Source: an uncultured Spartobacteria bacterium (GTDB lineage Bacteria > Verrucomicrobiota > Verrucomicrobiia > Chthoniobacterales > UBA6821). Taken from it: a stretch of 38,319 bases of DNA. The stretch spans positions 1 through 38,319 of the forward strand of contig CAIPWR010000068.1 in NCBI GenBank assembly GCA_903868795.1, in the 5' to 3' direction. Positions 8,702 to 38,319 of the stretch are shown here, in pieces. The translations under genes were made by a program, and so were the position numbers. The notes beneath the pieces are model-generated. The model was given only the letters and a program-made list of their open reading frames with translations, made no database searches and was not told where the DNA came from. Within the stretch, counting starts at the first letter, position 1. Each line of letters starts with the position of its first letter.

Positions 8702-9142
8702 CTTTTAAATATGTCCGAATTTTTTCGAAATATAAACCCGGATTGTGCGATAGCGTGTAGTCAACACTTTTGGGTGCTTCACCTGGATGGTGACCTCAGA
8801 GATCGTTAAAATTGTTACAATGTTAAAAGGTTTACAAAGGACTGAATCCAATCATCCTGAATCGGGATTGCCTCCTCTTATACCGTTCATCTAGCGTCCA
8901 CCTTCGTTCGATGCTCCGATGCACCCTCATCTCCACGTTGTAACGCTTCAACCTTTCTAACGATTTTAACTGCTCGGGATTCCGACTGGATGGGTGCTAA
9001 TGCAAATTTTGGGATAAAACGGGATTATATCTCACCGAAACGTGGAGAACGCAGAGAATCAATCCAAAAAATTCATTAGAATTCAGAATACTGCCCCACC
9101 TTGGCAGATAACACTTACCAAGTGCAGATATGCCGAATGAGG

Positions 9143-9287: not shown

Positions 9288-9457
9288 TTACTGATGCTTC
9301 TCTCTTCAGTCTCTTCACCAACTTGGTGCACAAGATTTCTCTGTTTCCATGATCCTATCGCAAAATCGGGGATCAAGTGACAAGCAGCGCTCTCGGTGTT
9401 GTGGAAGGTATTGGTTGCAGACAGATGAACCCCTACAGATTTTTGTTGGGCAAAACT

Positions 9458-29046: not shown

Positions 29047-30825
<1,779 letters not shown>

Positions 30826-30838
30826 GGCAAAAATTAAC

Positions 30839-30992
30839 CCAGATTTTGCATTAGGAGGAGCAGAAATGGATAAAAGGTGGGGGCGCGGGAGTCAGCTCTT
30901 GAGAAGAGACCGTCGAGCCAGGGGCGTTTTTTTGGAGCGAGAGCGATTTTGAGTGTGCGTTTTCTGGCGTGGGTTGAGATCCAAGCACCTAA
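30839..30992 (-). repeat. Duplicated ~153-bp upstream element, copy A
   Basis: Nearly identical to 38154-38306: one single-base indel, a few substitutions, and an 84-bp perfect core (30887-30970). It lies immediately upstream of the fucosidase start, just as copy B does for GH97, and probably holds a common promoter and operator. It contains CTCTT-GAG-AAGAG and TTTGCATTAGGAG. The IS5-like element is inserted at its distal edge. Confidence 0.85.
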
Positions 30993-32003
30993 GGAAGCGC
31001 TGATCAGAGCGGTTTTTCAAAAGGTTGGCTGATTTTTTGGTTATCCCTCGGCGGGGAAGAGTCAGGGAGTTGGCATTTTTTGGCCCAGAGACACCCGATG
31101 ACGGTATCCATTCCCTACCAAGAGGGGTATTTTCGCATCGATCTATGCCATTTGGGCCCTACGGAGCATCCGTCCTGCCATGACCAGATTAGCTAGGGCA
31201 AAGAGGCTGTGAAGTTGGGCGAGATTTTTCCTCAGCCCCCGGTATCGAACCTTCCGGTATCCGAAGAGGTTTTTGATGATGTGGAAGGGATGCTCCACCT
31301 TGGCTCTTACCTGAGCCCTCCGGCGCTCCCATTCCCTTAACAGATCCTTCTTCAACCCCTCAGCCATTGCCTTCAGGCGTCCCTTCTTCTGGGTCACCAT
31401 CCACTCGATCCCGCTCCCTTCAAACTCCTCCCTCTTCTCAACTCCGGTGTATCCCGCTGTGCACCAATCCCGACTCCGCGTCCGCCCCAATGTGGGCCTT
31501 CATCCCGAAGTACCACTGCTTGCCCTTGCGGGTCTGATGCATCTGCGGATCCCTCCGGCCCTCAGAGTTCTTGGTTGAGGAGGGGGCATTGATGATGGTG
31601 GCATCCACGATGGTTCCCTCCTTCATCATCAGCTTCTTGGCCTTCAGGTGTTCCCCGATTTGCTCAAAGATCGCTCTGGTCAGGTCGTTCTCCTCCAAAA
31701 GATGCCGGAACTTCAGCAGCGTCGTCGCATCAGGCACGCTCTCCCCTCCCAGATCCACTCCGATGAAGTTCCTCATGGCCTGACTGTCGTAGATCGCGTC
31801 TTCAAGGGCTTCGTCCGCCAGTCCGTACCACTGCGACAGGAAGTAGATCCTCAGCATCCTCTCAATCCCGATCGGCGGTCTTCTCTTCTCTCCCTTGGGA
31901 TAACACGGCTCGATCAACCCAATGAGCCTACCCCAGGGAACCACCTTTTCTTTATCCCGCTTAGCAACACTACGCAGGGCCTCTCGATTAAATCAGCGCT
32001 TCC
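30993..32003 (-). mobile_element. Decayed IS5-family insertion sequence
   Basis: About 1,011 bp bounded by perfect 12-bp inverted repeats (GGAAGCGCTGAT at 30993-31004; reverse complement at 31992-32003). The flanking CTAA at 30989-30992 and 32004-32007 is a 4-bp target duplication of the YTAR type used by IS5. It encodes an internally deleted, frameshifted transposase. It lies at the far edge of the duplicated upstream element. Confidence 0.82.
31143..31944 (-). pseudogene. IS5-family transposase, disrupted
   Basis: Two overlapping frames make up the remnant. The 5' part (31944-31438) has VPWGRLIGLIEP, GIERMLRIYFLSQWYGL, VPDATTLLKFRHLLE, the first catalytic Asp in EGTIVDATIINAP, and YFGMKAHIGADAESGLVHS. 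The 3' part (31490-31143) resumes at AGYTGVEKREE and holds the final Glu region RAKVEHPFHIIKNLFGYRKVRYRG. Compared with intact IS5 transposases about 30 residues around the second catalytic Asp (normally before DAGY) are missing, and the frame shifts at the junction. The usual N-terminal ~20 residues have no ATG. It is almost certainly inactive. Confidence 0.85.
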
Positions 32004-32034
32004 CTAACAACCCATGGAATAACCAAAAGGCGCC

Positions 32035-32116
32035 TAGCGGTGGTGGGACTTGAAACGACACACCTTTCGGTACTAGACCCTAAATCTAGCGCCTCTGCCA
32101 GTTTTACCATTCGAGC
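32035..32116 (-). tRNA. tRNA-Leu(UAG)-like remnant
   Basis: The minus strand has a type II tRNA outline: D-loop AAACTGGCAGA, an intact anticodon arm CTAGA-TTTAGGG-TCTAG (anticodon UAG), a variable arm ACC-GAAA-GGT, and TTCAAGT as the T-loop. The T-stem has two mismatches, and the 5' acceptor half does not pair with the 3' half ACCACCGCT, so it is probably a pseudo-tRNA. Position 38 is G. It lies ~30 bp from the IS5-like element. Confidence 0.55.
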
Positions 32117-32181
32117 TGAAATCGAGCCGTGTAATTTACTGCGGCGAAGGATTCCCGCAATTGTAAAAAATCTTTAATCTC

Positions 32182-33783
32182 TTATTTTTGAGGAGAGGGG
32201 AGAGGTGTTGGCGTTGGTGAAGAGAGAGGGAATGCATCTGTGCGGAATGGAGTCACAGGGAGCCCTTCTTTTGAAAAGAGGTTGCACTCGGGGGCGTTTT
32301 CCCAAGCATAGCGGACGGCGACTGGCACAGGCACTTTATCACTCCAGACTTCGACGGTATTTGTGCCGAGAACTTTTGCTTCAGCTGGCTGCCACTCACG
32401 ATCTTCTCCAGAGATAGCAAAACCGAGAACCTTTGCTGAATCGTAGGGGTAGAGGGAGCTATCAAAGCAATCGAACTGGAGAGTCGCCTTGTTGCCAGTG
32501 ATTGTGATGCTTTTGAACATGGGGCTTTGATAAGGAATTTTGATCCCATACTCCTTGGCAAGTGCGACACGGGCGATGCGGGCAGCCACATCGGCTTTGC
32601 GATGCGGATGGATATTGGAGGCTTCGCCTTGGTCGATGGTGACTGCCTGGCCTGTGTTTGGTAATGCAAGTGACTTTGTCTGAGCCTCGCGGATTTCGGC
32701 CCATCCTCCTTGGAAAGGAGTCGTGCGTGAACCATCATTGAACTTGGGAAGTTGTAGCCAGTAGAAAGGGAAATTTCCCTGACCCCACTCGGCACGCCAT
32801 TGCGTAATCATCAAGTTAAAGAGAGGGGCATAATCCCAAGGACAACCACGGTCGGACTCACCCTGATACCAGAGGACTCCTTTGATACCATATCCAATGA
32901 GGGGGTGGAGCTGGCTGGCAAAGGCATTGCCGGGTCGCTTCTGACTTTGCAGCCAATGGATCGTGGGGATATTGGGTTGAGGAGGCATTGGCTTGTGATC
33001 CATTTTGGCTTTGTCACAGGCGGCTTTCCAATCGGCAAGAGTCTTATCGTCGGCTGCCTTGCCATTGTCAGGAAGGAGTGTCGCCTCCTTCCGAGCGGCA
33101 TCGGACAATCTCAATTGGAAACGAGGATCGTGATCGAGTACGGAACGACGAATCCATGCCGTGATCTCCGAGCCACCCCACGCATTGTTGATCATTCCCA
33201 CGGGAACCTGGAGTGTCTGTTGGATGTATCGGCCAAAGAGGAACCCAACCGCACTGAATTTTCCAGCGGTCTCGGGAGTTGCAGCGACCCATTTTCCAGG
33301 AAAATCGGTCTGCATTTCCTGGGTTCCTCGGTCTGCTGGAATGCTGATAAATCGAAGAGAATCGTCATGGGTAGTGAGAGCATCTAAATCACCGTTCCAA
33401 GAATTTTTGAGTCCAAAGGCCATGTTGGATTGCCCTGAGCAGAGCCAAACTTCCCCAACGAGAACATCCTGAACTTCAATCTTTGTCGAACCGGTGATTG
33501 TCAGTTTTTGCGGTGTTGCATTGGCTAGTAGAGGATCGAGCTTCACTATCCACTTGCCATCTACACCTGCCACGGTTGTCTTAGTTTGTCCTGCAAACCC
33601 TACAGTGACTTTGGTGCCTGGAATGTCCCATCCCCAGATCGGATCGGCCTGTTTCTGCTGAAGCACCATGTGATCGCCGATGATGCTTGGAAGTTTGAGC
33701 GAGGGAGTGGTCTCGACAGTGTATGCTGAACCAAGGGCTGTCAGTAGTAAGGAGGCGAGGAGGATGAAGGAACTTTTTTTCAT
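32182..33783 (-). CDS. Secreted sialate O-acetylesterase family esterase
   Basis: 533 residues with a signal peptide (SFILLASLLLTALGSAYT). An N-terminal beta domain (PSIIGDHMVLQQ...PIWGWDIPGTKVTV) is followed by the SGNH/SASA esterase domain: VWLCSGQSNMAFG with nucleophile Ser119, PVGMINNAWGGSEITAWI, and GVLWYQGESDRG. The catalytic His is probably in ASNIHPHRKADV. The family removes O-acetyl groups from sialic acids or from plant and algal polysaccharides; in a locus with fucosidase and GH97 the natural ester is uncertain. It ends with a Pro/Thr/Ser-rich tail. It starts 39 bp after the BNR_4 gene, apparently in one operon with GH97. Confidence 0.92.
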   Translation of the reverse strand: MKKSSFILLASLLLTALGSAYTVETTPSLKLPSIIGDHMVLQQKQADPIWGWDIPGTKVTVGFAGQTKTTVAGVDGKWIVKLDPLLANATPQKLTITGSTKIEVQDVLVGEVWLCSGQSNMAFGLKNSWNGDLDALTTHDDSLRFISIPADRGTQEMQTDFPGKWVAATPETAGKFSAVGFLFGRYIQQTLQVPVGMINNAWGGSEITAWIRRSVLDHDPRFQLRLSDAARKEATLLPDNGKAADDKTLADWKAACDKAKMDHKPMPPQPNIPTIHWLQSQKRPGNAFASQLHPLIGYGIKGVLWYQGESDRGCPWDYAPLFNLMITQWRAEWGQGNFPFYWLQLPKFNDGSRTTPFQGGWAEIREAQTKSLALPNTGQAVTIDQGEASNIHPHRKADVAARIARVALAKEYGIKIPYQSPMFKSITITGNKATLQFDCFDSSLYPYDSAKVLGFAISGEDREWQPAEAKVLGTNTVEVWSDKVPVPVAVRYAWENAPECNLFSKEGLPVTPFRTDAFPLSSPTPTPLPSPQK

Positions 33784-33822
33784 GGAGGGAGAGACGGGAG
33801 TAATATCAACAGGTTTACAGCT

Positions 33823-36108
33823 TTACTGAAAATCAGGGGTCGTGGCAAGATGCCAGGATTTCCCGACATCGCCAGAGGCAAGAATCGTAAAATCGGTGTC
33901 TGATCCATGCGTGTCGGGCCAAATGATGGAACAGAAATCATCCTGTTCTTTACTATGAGCCTGCACGTTGTATTCGCTGTCGCAATAGCCCACGAAAAAA
34001 CGATTGCTCTCAGGATTGTAACTGACTCGATGATGCCAGACTCGGTACCCATTGCACCCAGGCACCACCAGAGGTTGCTCTTGATTCCATACTTCCGTTC
34101 CCGCAGGTTTTGAGAGAACTGCGAGGCGGTGATTGTAGTAATCGGTGTCGGAGCGAACGATGCAAAGAAGATTATCGTTCAGGTCACAATTCAACGAAGG
34201 ATAGCTGCACCTTGTTAAGTCATTAGATGTTGGTGATTTCTTAATATAGAAGGGAGTGCTCCAATGAGTGATGTCACTTGGTGTGATTGTATGCGTGTAA
34301 GACAGAGGCTCGCAATGACCAGAAATCACGACATGGAGATTGCCTTTGCTATCAATCGTCATGGCTGACCAATTGTGTGGATCCATACGCGATCCGCCGT
34401 AGCCTATGAAAACAGGGGAACTGAGTTTCAGTGTTTTTCGATTATAGGAGATCACATAGGTAGGCATACCTCCATTGGCCCGCATCGTTTCGGTGGCGCT
34501 TCCCTGACCACCTTTGCTCGTCACAAAAGTCATCGTATTGGCAGGATGATTTGATGGGACAGGAGGCTGCTCAGCCCTCCACTTAGCATCCCCTACCAGC
34601 GTCCAGGGAATCGGCCCAGGCAGATTAGGGAGGTAGGCATAGACCACATAGATCATGTCACCTTTTGAAATGACAAAGTTTCCACCGCCGGAATGAACGC
34701 TTCCAGTGAATGAGAAGTCAGAAAACTTCACCGGCTTTGGAATGACCAGCGATCCGTCCTTCTGCTTTTCAGGAATAAAGAGATTTCCCTCTCGTACGAT
34801 GACAGGAGGATGATCGAGCGCGTCCTGGTTAAAGGAATCGACATTCTCAAAATCACACTGCGTGGGCAGTTTGTAGAGACTCCACGGTTTACCGAGAGAT
34901 GTTGCATACAGAAGCAGTGTGGATCGAAAACGCGCATCCTCTTTTCCTGGGCTGATACGCTGCGTGACATTCACCAGCAGATAGACGGCCCCACTCCGAT
35001 CAAATCGGACTTTGGGTTCACATCGGCCCGAGCCAAATCCGATTCCCTTCCATTTTTGCTGGAGGGCATAATCTCGCAGTACGGAGGAAAAATCGGTTTC
35101 CTGCCAGACACCTTTGTTATCCAGCGAATCAAGGGAGTAGTTATTGCGAAGATAAACTTTGCCTTGTGGATCAAAGCTGACGGCCCCTGGGTGGTATCGC
35201 GGGTGATAGCCATAGAGTGCTCGCGCACCAGAAAAGTAGGGCTGGTGGATCAGAGGTGCGCCCGATATCAAATTCCGTGAGACCTCTGGACCATCATGAT
35301 TCATCTTGGCAAAGGAGCCGTACTCTCCACCTCCGATAAACAAGAGATCGTTGTTGGCTAAAGATGATGCAACTTTGATCTGTTCTTTATCGGACAAGAT
35401 ATTTGGAAGTAAAACAATCCTGTTGATGAATAGTACGGTTCTGGGATCGGGAGAACGATTCATGCATTTGCTGAAGAAATAGAGTCCTTGGATATTATTC
35501 CATCCTGCGGGTTCGCCGATTTTTTCAAACTCTGAGAAGGGGAAAGTGAATGCTTTCCATCCCGTCCAATTCACAGTGAACTCTTTGCTCCAGTAGCTCG
35601 GCGAGGGAGAGTTTTTCTGCCCCTGAATCAATGCGGGTGTCGCCGTTGTGGCCGTTTGGACTCCCAGCGTGATGATGTCGCCTGTGGCTTTTTCGGAATA
35701 GAGCGAGAGCCGAATCGCTCTAAAATTTTTCCAATCGCTAGGGACTGCGGGACTTTCGACGGTAGGATAGCGTGGTAGGTCGTGCCATTCGAGGGAAGCT
35801 GTGCCATTCAGGAGATGATTGGTAGAGATTTTTACTCCTTCGTAGAGATCTGATAGAGTGAGATGAGGGGTTGTCCAGCCAGGGCCGATGGTTCCTTTGG
35901 CATAGAGATCGAATTCCTTTTTCTTGCTGTCGAGAAAAGCAAAAGGTGCCGTCACCCAGATACCTGGAATCGTTGTGTCAATAAGGAGAGGACTTACTGA
36001 GGTTAGCTGGGCGGTCGGGTTCGTTACCAAAGAATCCACGCCCCATCCGTAAGGCATTGCCAAAGTTGCCAACAGGAATGCACTGGCAAGTGCCGTAGCC
36101 CTATTCAT
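33823..36108 (-). CDS. Secreted BNR_4 repeat protein with N-terminal carbohydrate-binding-like domain
   Basis: 761 residues: a signal peptide (ALASAFLLATLAMPYGWG), a beta-sandwich-like region (~40-235, with WHDLPRYPTVESP and GWKAFTFPFSEFEKIGEPAGWNNIQGLYFF), then a BNR_4-type beta propeller (~250-761) with FIGGGEYGSFAKMNHDGPEV, HNWSAMTIDSKGNLHVVISGH, SYPSLNCDLNDNLLCIVR and a closing SGDVGKSW Asp-box-like turn. BNR_4 propellers occur in polysaccharide lyases (e.g. PL24/PL25 ulvan lyases) and sialidase-like proteins; the activity is not decided here. It lies 20 bp after GH97 and 39 bp before the esterase. Confidence 0.82.
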   Translation of the reverse strand: MNRATALASAFLLATLAMPYGWGVDSLVTNPTAQLTSVSPLLIDTTIPGIWVTAPFAFLDSKKKEFDLYAKGTIGPGWTTPHLTLSDLYEGVKISTNHLLNGTASLEWHDLPRYPTVESPAVPSDWKNFRAIRLSLYSEKATGDIITLGVQTATTATPALIQGQKNSPSPSYWSKEFTVNWTGWKAFTFPFSEFEKIGEPAGWNNIQGLYFFSKCMNRSPDPRTVLFINRIVLLPNILSDKEQIKVASSLANNDLLFIGGGEYGSFAKMNHDGPEVSRNLISGAPLIHQPYFSGARALYGYHPRYHPGAVSFDPQGKVYLRNNYSLDSLDNKGVWQETDFSSVLRDYALQQKWKGIGFGSGRCEPKVRFDRSGAVYLLVNVTQRISPGKEDARFRSTLLLYATSLGKPWSLYKLPTQCDFENVDSFNQDALDHPPVIVREGNLFIPEKQKDGSLVIPKPVKFSDFSFTGSVHSGGGNFVISKGDMIYVVYAYLPNLPGPIPWTLVGDAKWRAEQPPVPSNHPANTMTFVTSKGGQGSATETMRANGGMPTYVISYNRKTLKLSSPVFIGYGGSRMDPHNWSAMTIDSKGNLHVVISGHCEPLSYTHTITPSDITHWSTPFYIKKSPTSNDLTRCSYPSLNCDLNDNLLCIVRSDTDYYNHRLAVLSKPAGTEVWNQEQPLVVPGCNGYRVWHHRVSYNPESNRFFVGYCDSEYNVQAHSKEQDDFCSIIWPDTHGSDTDFTILASGDVGKSWHLATTPDFQ

Positions 36109-36128
36109 TAGGTTTTTTTCTGATCCTA

Positions 36129-38117
36129 TCAGCTCTTGGGAACAATCCTGATTGCCATGCCTCCATTGGCAGGAATATCGGCTTGGATCATCGAATGACT
36201 ATCTACGGTTTTCTCTATGATTTTGACTGCGTGCTCTGTGGGGAGTTTTGATGGATCGGCAGCATCTACCGGATCATCTTCAAAAATCTTTGCGGAATAA
36301 TTCTTCCCCTTGGGGAGAAAATCGAGAGCGATCTCAAATTTGCGATTCTCTGGTGCAATCGCCCCTAAAAACCAATCTTCTCCTTTGCGACGGGCCACGA
36401 CGACTCGTTTCCCAATCTCGCCCTGGAGCACGCGGGTTTCGTTCCAAGTTGAGGGGAGATGATCCCAATAATCGAGAGCCGCTTCGTCCAAAATGCTCTT
36501 CGGAGAGCCGTACCAATACATGCACGACCAAGGATTGAAAAAAATGGTGGAGATCGCGAGTTGATGGGCCTTCGTATTTTTCAGCCGCTTTTCATTCCAG
36601 CAATAGGTGTGATCGGCTGGCCCCGTCAGGAAGCGACTGAACGGAAGCGTGGCATTATGCGTCGCTGTTGGCATGGTCTCATCGCCACCAATTCCTTCAA
36701 CCTCCATCAAATTGGGGTAAGTGCGTTCATAGCCACAGTTACGGAATTCATCATGCATATCAACCATCAGGTGATGAGCCGCTGCCTTACGGATCGCCTC
36801 GTGATCGAAGGCTTGCCAATACTGGCTGCCGACAGAGACAAAGCCATACTTCACCCCCTTGACTCCCCACTTTTCATAGAGGGGAAGAATCTGATCAAGT
36901 TGCTTGTCCATGTGCATGTGGTTCACATAGAGAATCACGCCGATTCCATTGGTATTGCCATAGTCAATGACCTCCTGAAGATTGAGTGATTTCTGAAGAT
37001 GTGGAGCAACTGCGCTGGCATCAGAATGAGGATCGACTTCAGGGCCATACCATCCGGCATCGTAGAGGAGATATTTCATTCCATGCTTCACTGCAAAATC
37101 GACACAGGCCTTCCCTCCCTCCGTCGTGAAGGAAGTTTCACGCATGACATTTCCTGGCTTGATCCAAGAAGTATCGGCTAGGGCGCATGGTTCATTGAGA
37201 TTGAGAATGAGGTAATTGTGTTCGAGTAGTTTGCTTGGTGATTCCGCCACCATCACGACGCGCCAGGGTGTGCTGAATGGAACGCGTCCCATGACCTCGC
37301 CATCGAGAGCCACGCCATCGCGATTCCGCTCGGCATCGAGGAATGCCTCAAGGGTGTTTGGAGAGGTTTTGGAGAGGCGGAATTTCGTGCGTGCGTAGTT
37401 GGCGGTATAAGCCTCGGTGAGAGATGTATAGAGATGGTCGTCGATCTGAACCGTCAATGGTCGCTCGGCTCCGGGTGAGATCTTGCTCAAAGAAATCTTG
37501 CTGTGAGTGTAATCTCCTTGCGCACTATTGATCGCCCAGGCGGGATAATCCCCAGCAAAAGCGAACTGAGTCGTCTCCATCAAGATGTCCACCACAGGGA
37601 GATTGTTCTCCTCCGGCAAGGTGTAGCGGAAAGCCACTCCCTCATCGTAGGCTCGGAAGGTGATGTTCATTTGGCTAGCACTCCAGGTGGGGCCAGCAAG
37701 CTGCATCTCCACAGTCATCTCATTATAGTGATCGCGAATCTCAGAACGCTCTCCGTTCACCGGCTTCCAGGAGGTATCGACGCTCTTTGTCTTCTGATCC
37801 AGAAAACGGAAGTTATGAGTCATGCATCTGTCCCTCTGTTCTAGCCCTAAGCGGGATTCGACAATCACAGGCTTGCCTTCATACGACACGCGATAGACGG
37901 GACAGCCATCATCTTTTCCAATCGGCTTCAAATCGAAATCGACGACAAGTTTCCCGTTAGGGGATTTCAGTTGGAGCGAAACCGGAGAAGGCGTTGGCGT
38001 TGGTGTCGGGGAGGGGTTGGAAGCCGGAGCCCCGGATAGTAGAAAGCAAGGCATCAAAAAAAATCCAAAAACAGAAAAGAAAAAATATAGAGGGCGGAGG
38101 CGGATCGATGTATTCAT
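36129..38117 (-). CDS. Secreted GH97 alpha-glycosidase
   Basis: 662 residues: an N-terminal hydrophobic signal region, a Pro-Thr/Ser linker (PTPTPTPSP), the GH97 N-terminal beta domain (LKSPNGKLVVDFDL, PVIVESRLGLE), the (beta/alpha)8 barrel with MKYLLYDAGWYGPE, GVILYVNHMHMD, GVKGVKYGFVSVGSQ, VDMHDEFRNCGYERTYPNLMEVEG, and a C-terminal beta domain. Retaining GH97 enzymes have a nucleophile Asp in the VK-x-D motif; here it is Gly425 (KYGF), as in inverting alpha-glucosidases like SusB. An inverting mechanism is therefore suggested. It is first in the GH97-BNR_4-esterase block, directly downstream of copy B of the duplicated element. Confidence 0.92.
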   Translation of the reverse strand: MNTSIRLRPLYFFFSVFGFFLMPCFLLSGAPASNPSPTPTPTPSPVSLQLKSPNGKLVVDFDLKPIGKDDGCPVYRVSYEGKPVIVESRLGLEQRDRCMTHNFRFLDQKTKSVDTSWKPVNGERSEIRDHYNEMTVEMQLAGPTWSASQMNITFRAYDEGVAFRYTLPEENNLPVVDILMETTQFAFAGDYPAWAINSAQGDYTHSKISLSKISPGAERPLTVQIDDHLYTSLTEAYTANYARTKFRLSKTSPNTLEAFLDAERNRDGVALDGEVMGRVPFSTPWRVVMVAESPSKLLEHNYLILNLNEPCALADTSWIKPGNVMRETSFTTEGGKACVDFAVKHGMKYLLYDAGWYGPEVDPHSDASAVAPHLQKSLNLQEVIDYGNTNGIGVILYVNHMHMDKQLDQILPLYEKWGVKGVKYGFVSVGSQYWQAFDHEAIRKAAAHHLMVDMHDEFRNCGYERTYPNLMEVEGIGGDETMPTATHNATLPFSRFLTGPADHTYCWNEKRLKNTKAHQLAISTIFFNPWSCMYWYGSPKSILDEAALDYWDHLPSTWNETRVLQGEIGKRVVVARRKGEDWFLGAIAPENRKFEIALDFLPKGKNYSAKIFEDDPVDAADPSKLPTEHAVKIIEKTVDSHSMIQADIPANGGMAIRIVPKS

Positions 38118-38153
38118 GGGGAGTTTACTTGTGACTGGACTATTAGCATAAAT

Positions 38154-38306
38154 CCAGATTTTGCATTAGGAGGAGCAGAAATGGGTAAAAGGAGGGGCGA
38201 GGGAGTCAGCTCTTGAGAAGAGACCGTCGAGCCAGGGGCGTTTTTTTGGAGCGAGAGCGATTTTGAGTGTGCGTTTTCTGGCGTGATTGGTAATCCAAGC
38301 TCCTAA
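38154..38306 (-). repeat. Duplicated ~153-bp upstream element, copy B
   Basis: Second copy of the sequence at 30839-30992, in the same orientation, 37 bp upstream of the GH97 start. In this copy TTTGCATTAGGAG (38160-38172) is mirrored exactly by CTCCTAATGCAAA (38300-38312), so the element is framed by 13-bp inverted repeats. It could be two operator sites of one regulator or the ends of a MITE-like unit. The window ends just beyond it. Confidence 0.85.
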
Positions 38307-38319
38307 TGCAAAGAATTTG

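What the first reader, a model, noticed from the sequence alone, without database searches (positions are those of the whole stretch)
30839..38306. The same ~153-bp sequence stands in front of two separate glycan-degradation blocks
Copies at 30839-30992 and 38154-38306 have an 84-bp perfect core, same orientation, and lie 14 and 37 bp upstream of the GH29 and GH97 genes, which are unrelated in sequence. This points to a duplicated promoter/operator cassette giving coordinated expression, or to a small element that carries promoters. As direct repeats 7.3 kb apart, they could also recombine to delete the GH97-BNR_4-esterase block.
Basis: seen in the sequence. Interest (0 to 1): 0.65.

Follow-up and report, generated by a model that had tools for sequence, protein, structure and literature searches.

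The report
Two leftover ends of a transposon
The sequence repeated in front of two sugar-digesting-enzyme genes is not a purpose-built switch but the tail end of a common jumping gene (an IS1380-family insertion sequence), which may or may not help turn those genes on.

Summary
The repeat is real: 154 and 153 bp, 94% identical, with an 85-bp perfect core. It is not an intergenic promoter cassette. Read on the minus strand it is the last ~50 codons of a transposase gene plus the right terminal inverted repeat of an IS1380-family insertion sequence. A congener holds a complete 1,389-bp copy whose 452-aa transposase passes NCBIfam's IS1380 cut-off (247 bits against 180). Copy 2 runs to the contig end, probably because the multi-copy IS broke the assembly. 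Copy 1 is a remnant cut off by a 1,011-bp IS5-family element with CTAA on both sides. Past 15 right ends in this genome and congeners, the next gene is convergent in 10 and co-directional in 5; apart from these two cases no neighbour is a glycoside hydrolase. No sigma-70-like promoter lies in the repeat. IS1380 elements are known to carry outward promoters and mobilise DNA beyond their 3' end (PMC9330008), so an effect on GH29 and GH97 is possible but unshown. Side result: codons TGC-TTT-GCA-TTA-GGA, 130-140 bp inside the right end, mirror the terminal repeat and are the strongest synonymous-constraint peak in the transposase gene.

The parts
30838..30992 (-). Copy 1: right-end remnant of an IS1380-family element (IS positions about 1236-1389 of 1389: transposase 3' coding end plus right inverted repeat); truncated
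   Evidence: 83% identical to the congener full-length IS over positions 1236-1389; aligned right ends
38153..38319 (-). Copy 2: right end of an IS1380-family element running off the contig end; open reading frame KFFALGAWITNHARKRTLKIALAPKKRPWLDGLFSRADSLAPPFTHFCSS
   Evidence: 86% identical to full-length IS positions 1223-1388; tblastn 82% over transposase residues 403-452
30845..30857 (-). Terminal inverted-repeat core of copy 1 (CTCCTAATGCAAA on the minus strand)
38160..38172 (-). Terminal inverted-repeat core of copy 2 (CTCCTAATGCAAA on the minus strand)
38300..38312 (-). Internal copy of the repeat core inside the transposase gene (TTTGCATTAGGAG, codons for FALG), inverted relative to the terminal one
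   Evidence: synonymous constraint
30993..32003 (-). IS5-family element, 1,011 bp, transposase broken into two frames (ORFs 31438-31944 and 31143-31490), ends GGAAGCGCTGAT/ATCAGCGCTTCC, flanked by CTAA (30989-30992 and 32004-32007); copy 1 ends at it
   Evidence: NF033581 IS5 transposase hits; ends and flanks
29047..30825 (-). GH29 alpha-L-fucosidase, starts 12 bp past the IS right end of copy 1
   Evidence: PF01120
36129..38117 (-). GH97 glycoside hydrolase, starts 35 bp past the IS right end of copy 2
   Evidence: PF14508, PF10566, PF14509

Best explanation
The two copies are the right ends of two separate insertions of one IS1380-family insertion sequence. Both landed just upstream of minus-strand glycosidase genes, with the transposase gene pointing at them. 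Copy 2 belongs to an element whose remainder is off the contig; copy 1 is a remnant that ends at an IS5-family insertion. The identity between copies is transposon identity, not a shared regulatory design (shown by homology). By analogy with ISEcp1 and ISPme1, the end could supply an outward promoter or read-through transcription to GH29 and GH97 (inferred, unshown).
For: A complete congener element (L127) has a 452-aa transposase scoring 247 bits on NF033539 IS1380, cut-off 180, and 144 bits on PF13701. Both window copies align to its last ~155-166 bp up to the terminus. All 14 aligned right ends stop being alike at about the same base, after CTAATGCAAAATYTGG. Many congener copies sit at contig ends 115-141 bp inside the element, the mark of collapsed multi-copy repeats. 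The own genome also holds left ends at C71 and C60 and an internally deleted copy at C146.
Against: No complete copy is assembled in the window's own genome, so whether copy 2 is full length is not shown. No target duplication joins an assembled left end to either window copy (flanks differ). The complete congener copy (L127) does not show matching flanks either.
Confidence: 0.95

Rival explanations
1. IS1380 end as acquired promoter: the right end carries an outward promoter and was kept upstream of GH29 and GH97 because it drives them, as ISEcp1 does for bla genes; copy 1 is a promoter-bearing stub of the kind described for blaOXA-232. This adds a function to the best explanation rather than contradicting it.
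For: Geometry is right: the IS 3' end is 12 and 35 bp from co-directional start codons. Outward promoters are documented in IS1380 elements, and a ~200-bp ISEcp1 stub kept as a promoter is reviewed in PMC9330008.
Against: No sigma-70-like site within the repeat on the minus strand, though promoters of this lineage may differ. 10 of 15 right ends face the 3' ends of genes.
Confidence: 0.3
2. Duplicated host promoter/operator cassette for coordinated control of glycan degradation.
For: Only the position in front of two hydrolase genes.
Against: The sequence is transposase coding DNA. The third own-genome copy adjoins a convergent short-chain dehydrogenase gene. Only three copies exist in the assembled genome, none at the window's GH3 gene or the genome's other GH29-like genes.
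Confidence: 0.02
3. The GH97-BNR_4-esterase block between the copies is an IS1380-mobilised transposable module (IS plus downstream DNA), with copy 1's right repeat used as far end.
For: IS1380 elements mobilise DNA adjacent to their 3' end (PMC9330008). The block lies on the 3' side of copy 2 and ends at a genuine right repeat (copy 1). Close homologues of GH97 are missing from the 15 congeners searched.
Against: The required 5-bp duplications cannot be checked, since the left end of copy 2 is off the contig. Copy 1 contains ~155 bp of IS, more simply a separate insertion.
Confidence: 0.08

Closest known systems
IS1380-family insertion sequences (NCBIfam NF033539)
   Same: Transposase family, terminal inverted repeats at both ends, about 1.4 kb in the congener copy
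   Different: Own repeat sequence (CCCARATTTTGC...); an internal, DNA-level-conserved copy of the repeat core in the transposase gene, for which the one literature search run found no description
ISEcp1 upstream of blaCTX-M, and ISPme1 transposable modules (both IS1380 family; PMC9330008)
   Same: 3' end of the IS directly upstream of a co-directional gene
   Different: Neighbours are glycosidases, not resistance genes; no promoter detected; mobilisation not shown
MITE-like IS derivatives
   Same: The ~153-bp stretch is bounded by 13-bp inverted repeats; a separate 277-bp element at 8737-9013 has IS1380-type ends and a 5-bp duplication
   Different: For the repeat itself no target duplication defines it as a unit; relatives of it continue past the internal repeat core into the transposase gene

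Membership tests
IS1380 insertion sequence | Transposase above the curated IS1380 cut-off | tested here: met
   NF033539, 247.4 bits against 180, for the congener copy L127; window copies align to its last 40-50 codons
IS1380 insertion sequence | Inverted repeats at both termini | tested here: met
   Left CCCAGATTTTGCGATAG, right CTAATGCAAAATTTGGG in L127; window copies carry the right repeat only
IS1380 insertion sequence | Short target duplications (4-5 bp) | tested here: inconclusive
   Not matched for L127 and not testable for the window copies; 5-bp ATAAA duplication seen for the related mini-element at 8737-9013
Promoter/operator cassette | Copies placed upstream of co-directional genes of one function | tested here: not met
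   10 of 15 right ends convergent; neighbours include RlmN, GcpE, NrdR, PPDK, T2SSE, HisA
Promoter/operator cassette | Recognisable promoter in the repeat | tested here: inconclusive
   No sigma-70-like site in either copy; other promoter types not covered by the scan
IS1380 transposable module (TMo) | IS plus adjacent 3' DNA bounded by one pair of target duplications | not testable with these tools
   Left end of copy 2 lies beyond the contig end
MITE | Short unit with terminal repeats and its own target duplications, no coding capacity | tested here: not met
   Copy 2 continues past the internal repeat with transposase-like sequence to the contig end; the only duplication at the inner end of copy 1 is that of IS5

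The most novel reading that the evidence does not exclude
In a wide subgroup of IS1380 elements the transposase gene contains a third, inverted copy of the terminal repeat (TGCTTTGCATTAGGAG, codons CFALG), about 130-140 bp inside the right end and held at DNA level, probably as a second transposase-binding site of the right end. It may also act as a pseudo-end or weak spot that leaves ~150-bp right-end stubs like copy 1.
Probability: 0.35. Interest if true: 0.5.

Novelty: new member of a known kind. Interest (0 to 1): 0.3.

Why it matters
It removes a tempting but wrong reading (a shared regulatory cassette for glycan degradation) and replaces it with an ordinary cause: transposon ends. It is a reminder that identical intergenic repeats next to contig ends are often the 3' ends of insertion sequences. 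If the internal repeat is a real transposase site, it would give a testable clue to how IS1380 elements, which spread beta-lactamase genes, organise their right end.

Tried and rejected
Stand-alone MITE: considered because of the 13-bp inverted repeats at both ends of the 153-bp unit in copy 2, rejected because copy 2, C146 and congener copies continue past the internal repeat into the transposase gene. Extension of copy 1 to 31037 (tblastn): rejected, those bases are the IS5 end. Empty-site comparison: no close GH29 or GH97 orthologue in 15 congeners. A long-range RNA hairpin between the internal and terminal repeat: predicted, but only z -1.84 against shuffles. A tRNA-like stretch suspected by eye beyond the IS5 element (about 32010-32130): not found by ARAGORN or Rfam.

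Full report
Observation. The two copies are present as described: 30839-30992 and 38154-38306, same orientation, 94% identical, with an 85-bp perfect core at 30887 and 38201. They lie in front of the minus-strand GH29 gene (29047-30825) and GH97 gene (36129-38117), both confirmed by Pfam. A third, partial copy is in contig C146 of the same 169-contig, 2.77-Mb genome. The window is the whole of contig C68 and ends 13 bp after copy 2.

What it is. In C146 the repeat, read on the minus strand, is part of a C-terminal transposase sequence (AYNLMSLFRQLVLQSS...FALGAWITNHARKRTLKIALAPKKRPWLDGLFS) that matches PF13701 weakly. Searches of 15 same-genus genomes found the element in five by DNA and six by protein. 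G006:C53 holds a complete copy (L127): 1,389 bp, 452-aa open frame, left end CCCAGATTTTGCGATAG, right end CTCCTAATGCAAAATTTGGG. NCBIfam places the transposase in IS1380 (NF033539, 247 bits, cut-off 180). Window copy 2 aligns to IS positions 1223-1388 and copy 1 to 1236-1389. The repeat is therefore the transposase 3' end plus the right terminal repeat.

Why the borders look as they do. Copy 2 runs to the contig end; congener contigs likewise end 115-141 bp inside the same IS, as expected of a collapsed multi-copy repeat (inference). Copy 1 stops at 30992 because a 1,011-bp IS5-family element (30993-32003, ends GGAAGCGCTGAT/ATCAGCGCTTCC, CTAA on both sides, transposase split in two frames) sits there. 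Sequence beyond the far CTAA is not IS1380, so copy 1 was already cut there or was cut by recombination between IS5 copies (inference). The own genome also has two left ends (C71, C60) and one internally deleted copy (C146).

Does it act on GH29 and GH97? The geometry (IS 3' end 12 and 35 bp from co-directional start codons) is that of ISEcp1-bla. A review states that IS1380 members carry outward promoters, mobilise DNA adjacent to the 3' end, and that a ~200-bp ISEcp1 stub was kept as a promoter for blaOXA-232 (PMC9330008). Against a general promoter role: of 15 right ends with readable flanks, 10 face the 3' end of the next gene (SDR, RlmN, GcpE, NrdR, serine acetyltransferase-like, PPDK, nitroreductase, T2SSE, HisA, one unnamed) and 5 are co-directional (GH29, GH97, an S24 peptidase, the rnpA region, IGPS). 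P(5 or fewer of 15) is 0.15 under an even split, so there is no enrichment for gene starts. No sigma-70-like site was found in the repeat. A promoter effect remains possible, unshown.

Side result: an internal copy of the terminal repeat. The 13-bp TTTGCATTAGGAG occurs inverted at both ends of the unit in copy 2. The inner copy is the codons for FALG in the transposase gene. In L127, TTA is used for 1 of 44 leucines, at this site. Over 28 full-length transposases below 85% nucleotide identity to each other, the codons of CFALG give the highest five-codon synonymous-conservation score in the gene: 10.6 against a mean of 2.8, sd 1.4, and 6.1 for the next best separate stretch. All 12 sequences with leucine at that site use TTA (2.7 expected). 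The best inverted match downstream lies at 130 or 140-141 bp in 20 of the 28, although in about half of those the match is no better than that of many other stretches of the same gene. In some elements the internal variant also follows the left-end variant (L110: TTTGCAGTTGG in both). Five rearranged copies (copy 1, L135, L137, L138, L139) break at IS positions 1232-1249, next to this site at 1230-1242; at least L135 and L138 could be explained by short matching repeats, and the clustering was noticed after the fact. Caveats: the relatives are phylogenetically linked, so the scores are inflated, and binding is untested.

Verdict. Ordinary: ends of an IS1380-family element, a new member of a known kind. 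The internal repeat is the only part that might interest a transposon specialist.

Noticed in passing
window 8737-9013: A 277-bp mini-element with IS1380-type ends (CCCGGATTGTGCGATAG ... CTAATGCAAATTTTGGG) flanked by a perfect 5-bp duplication ATAAA (8732-8736, 9014-9018); contig C134 of the same genome holds a sequence with the same kind of left end (L163). Another left-end-like motif lies on the minus strand at 9360-9371.
   Followed up: partly
L127 and relatives, IS positions 1230-1242; window 38300-38312: DNA-level-conserved internal copy of the IS1380 terminal repeat inside the transposase gene, the strongest synonymous-constraint peak in the gene.
   Followed up: partly
L135, L138: The IS1380 right end is followed directly by the end of the IS5-family element (TTTAATCAGCGCTTCC, ATAAATCAGCGCTTCC), suggesting that the TTAA in the IS5 end is a favoured IS1380 target in this genus.
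   Followed up: partly
L165 (contig C71), last 40 bases: The left part of an IS1380 copy is interrupted by another IS1380-type end (TTAAACCCAAAAATTGCATTAGAAG), i.e. nested elements.
   Followed up: no
G000, contigs C76, C66, C2, C148, C155: The window's genome holds several GH29-like genes, more than any congener searched.
   Followed up: no
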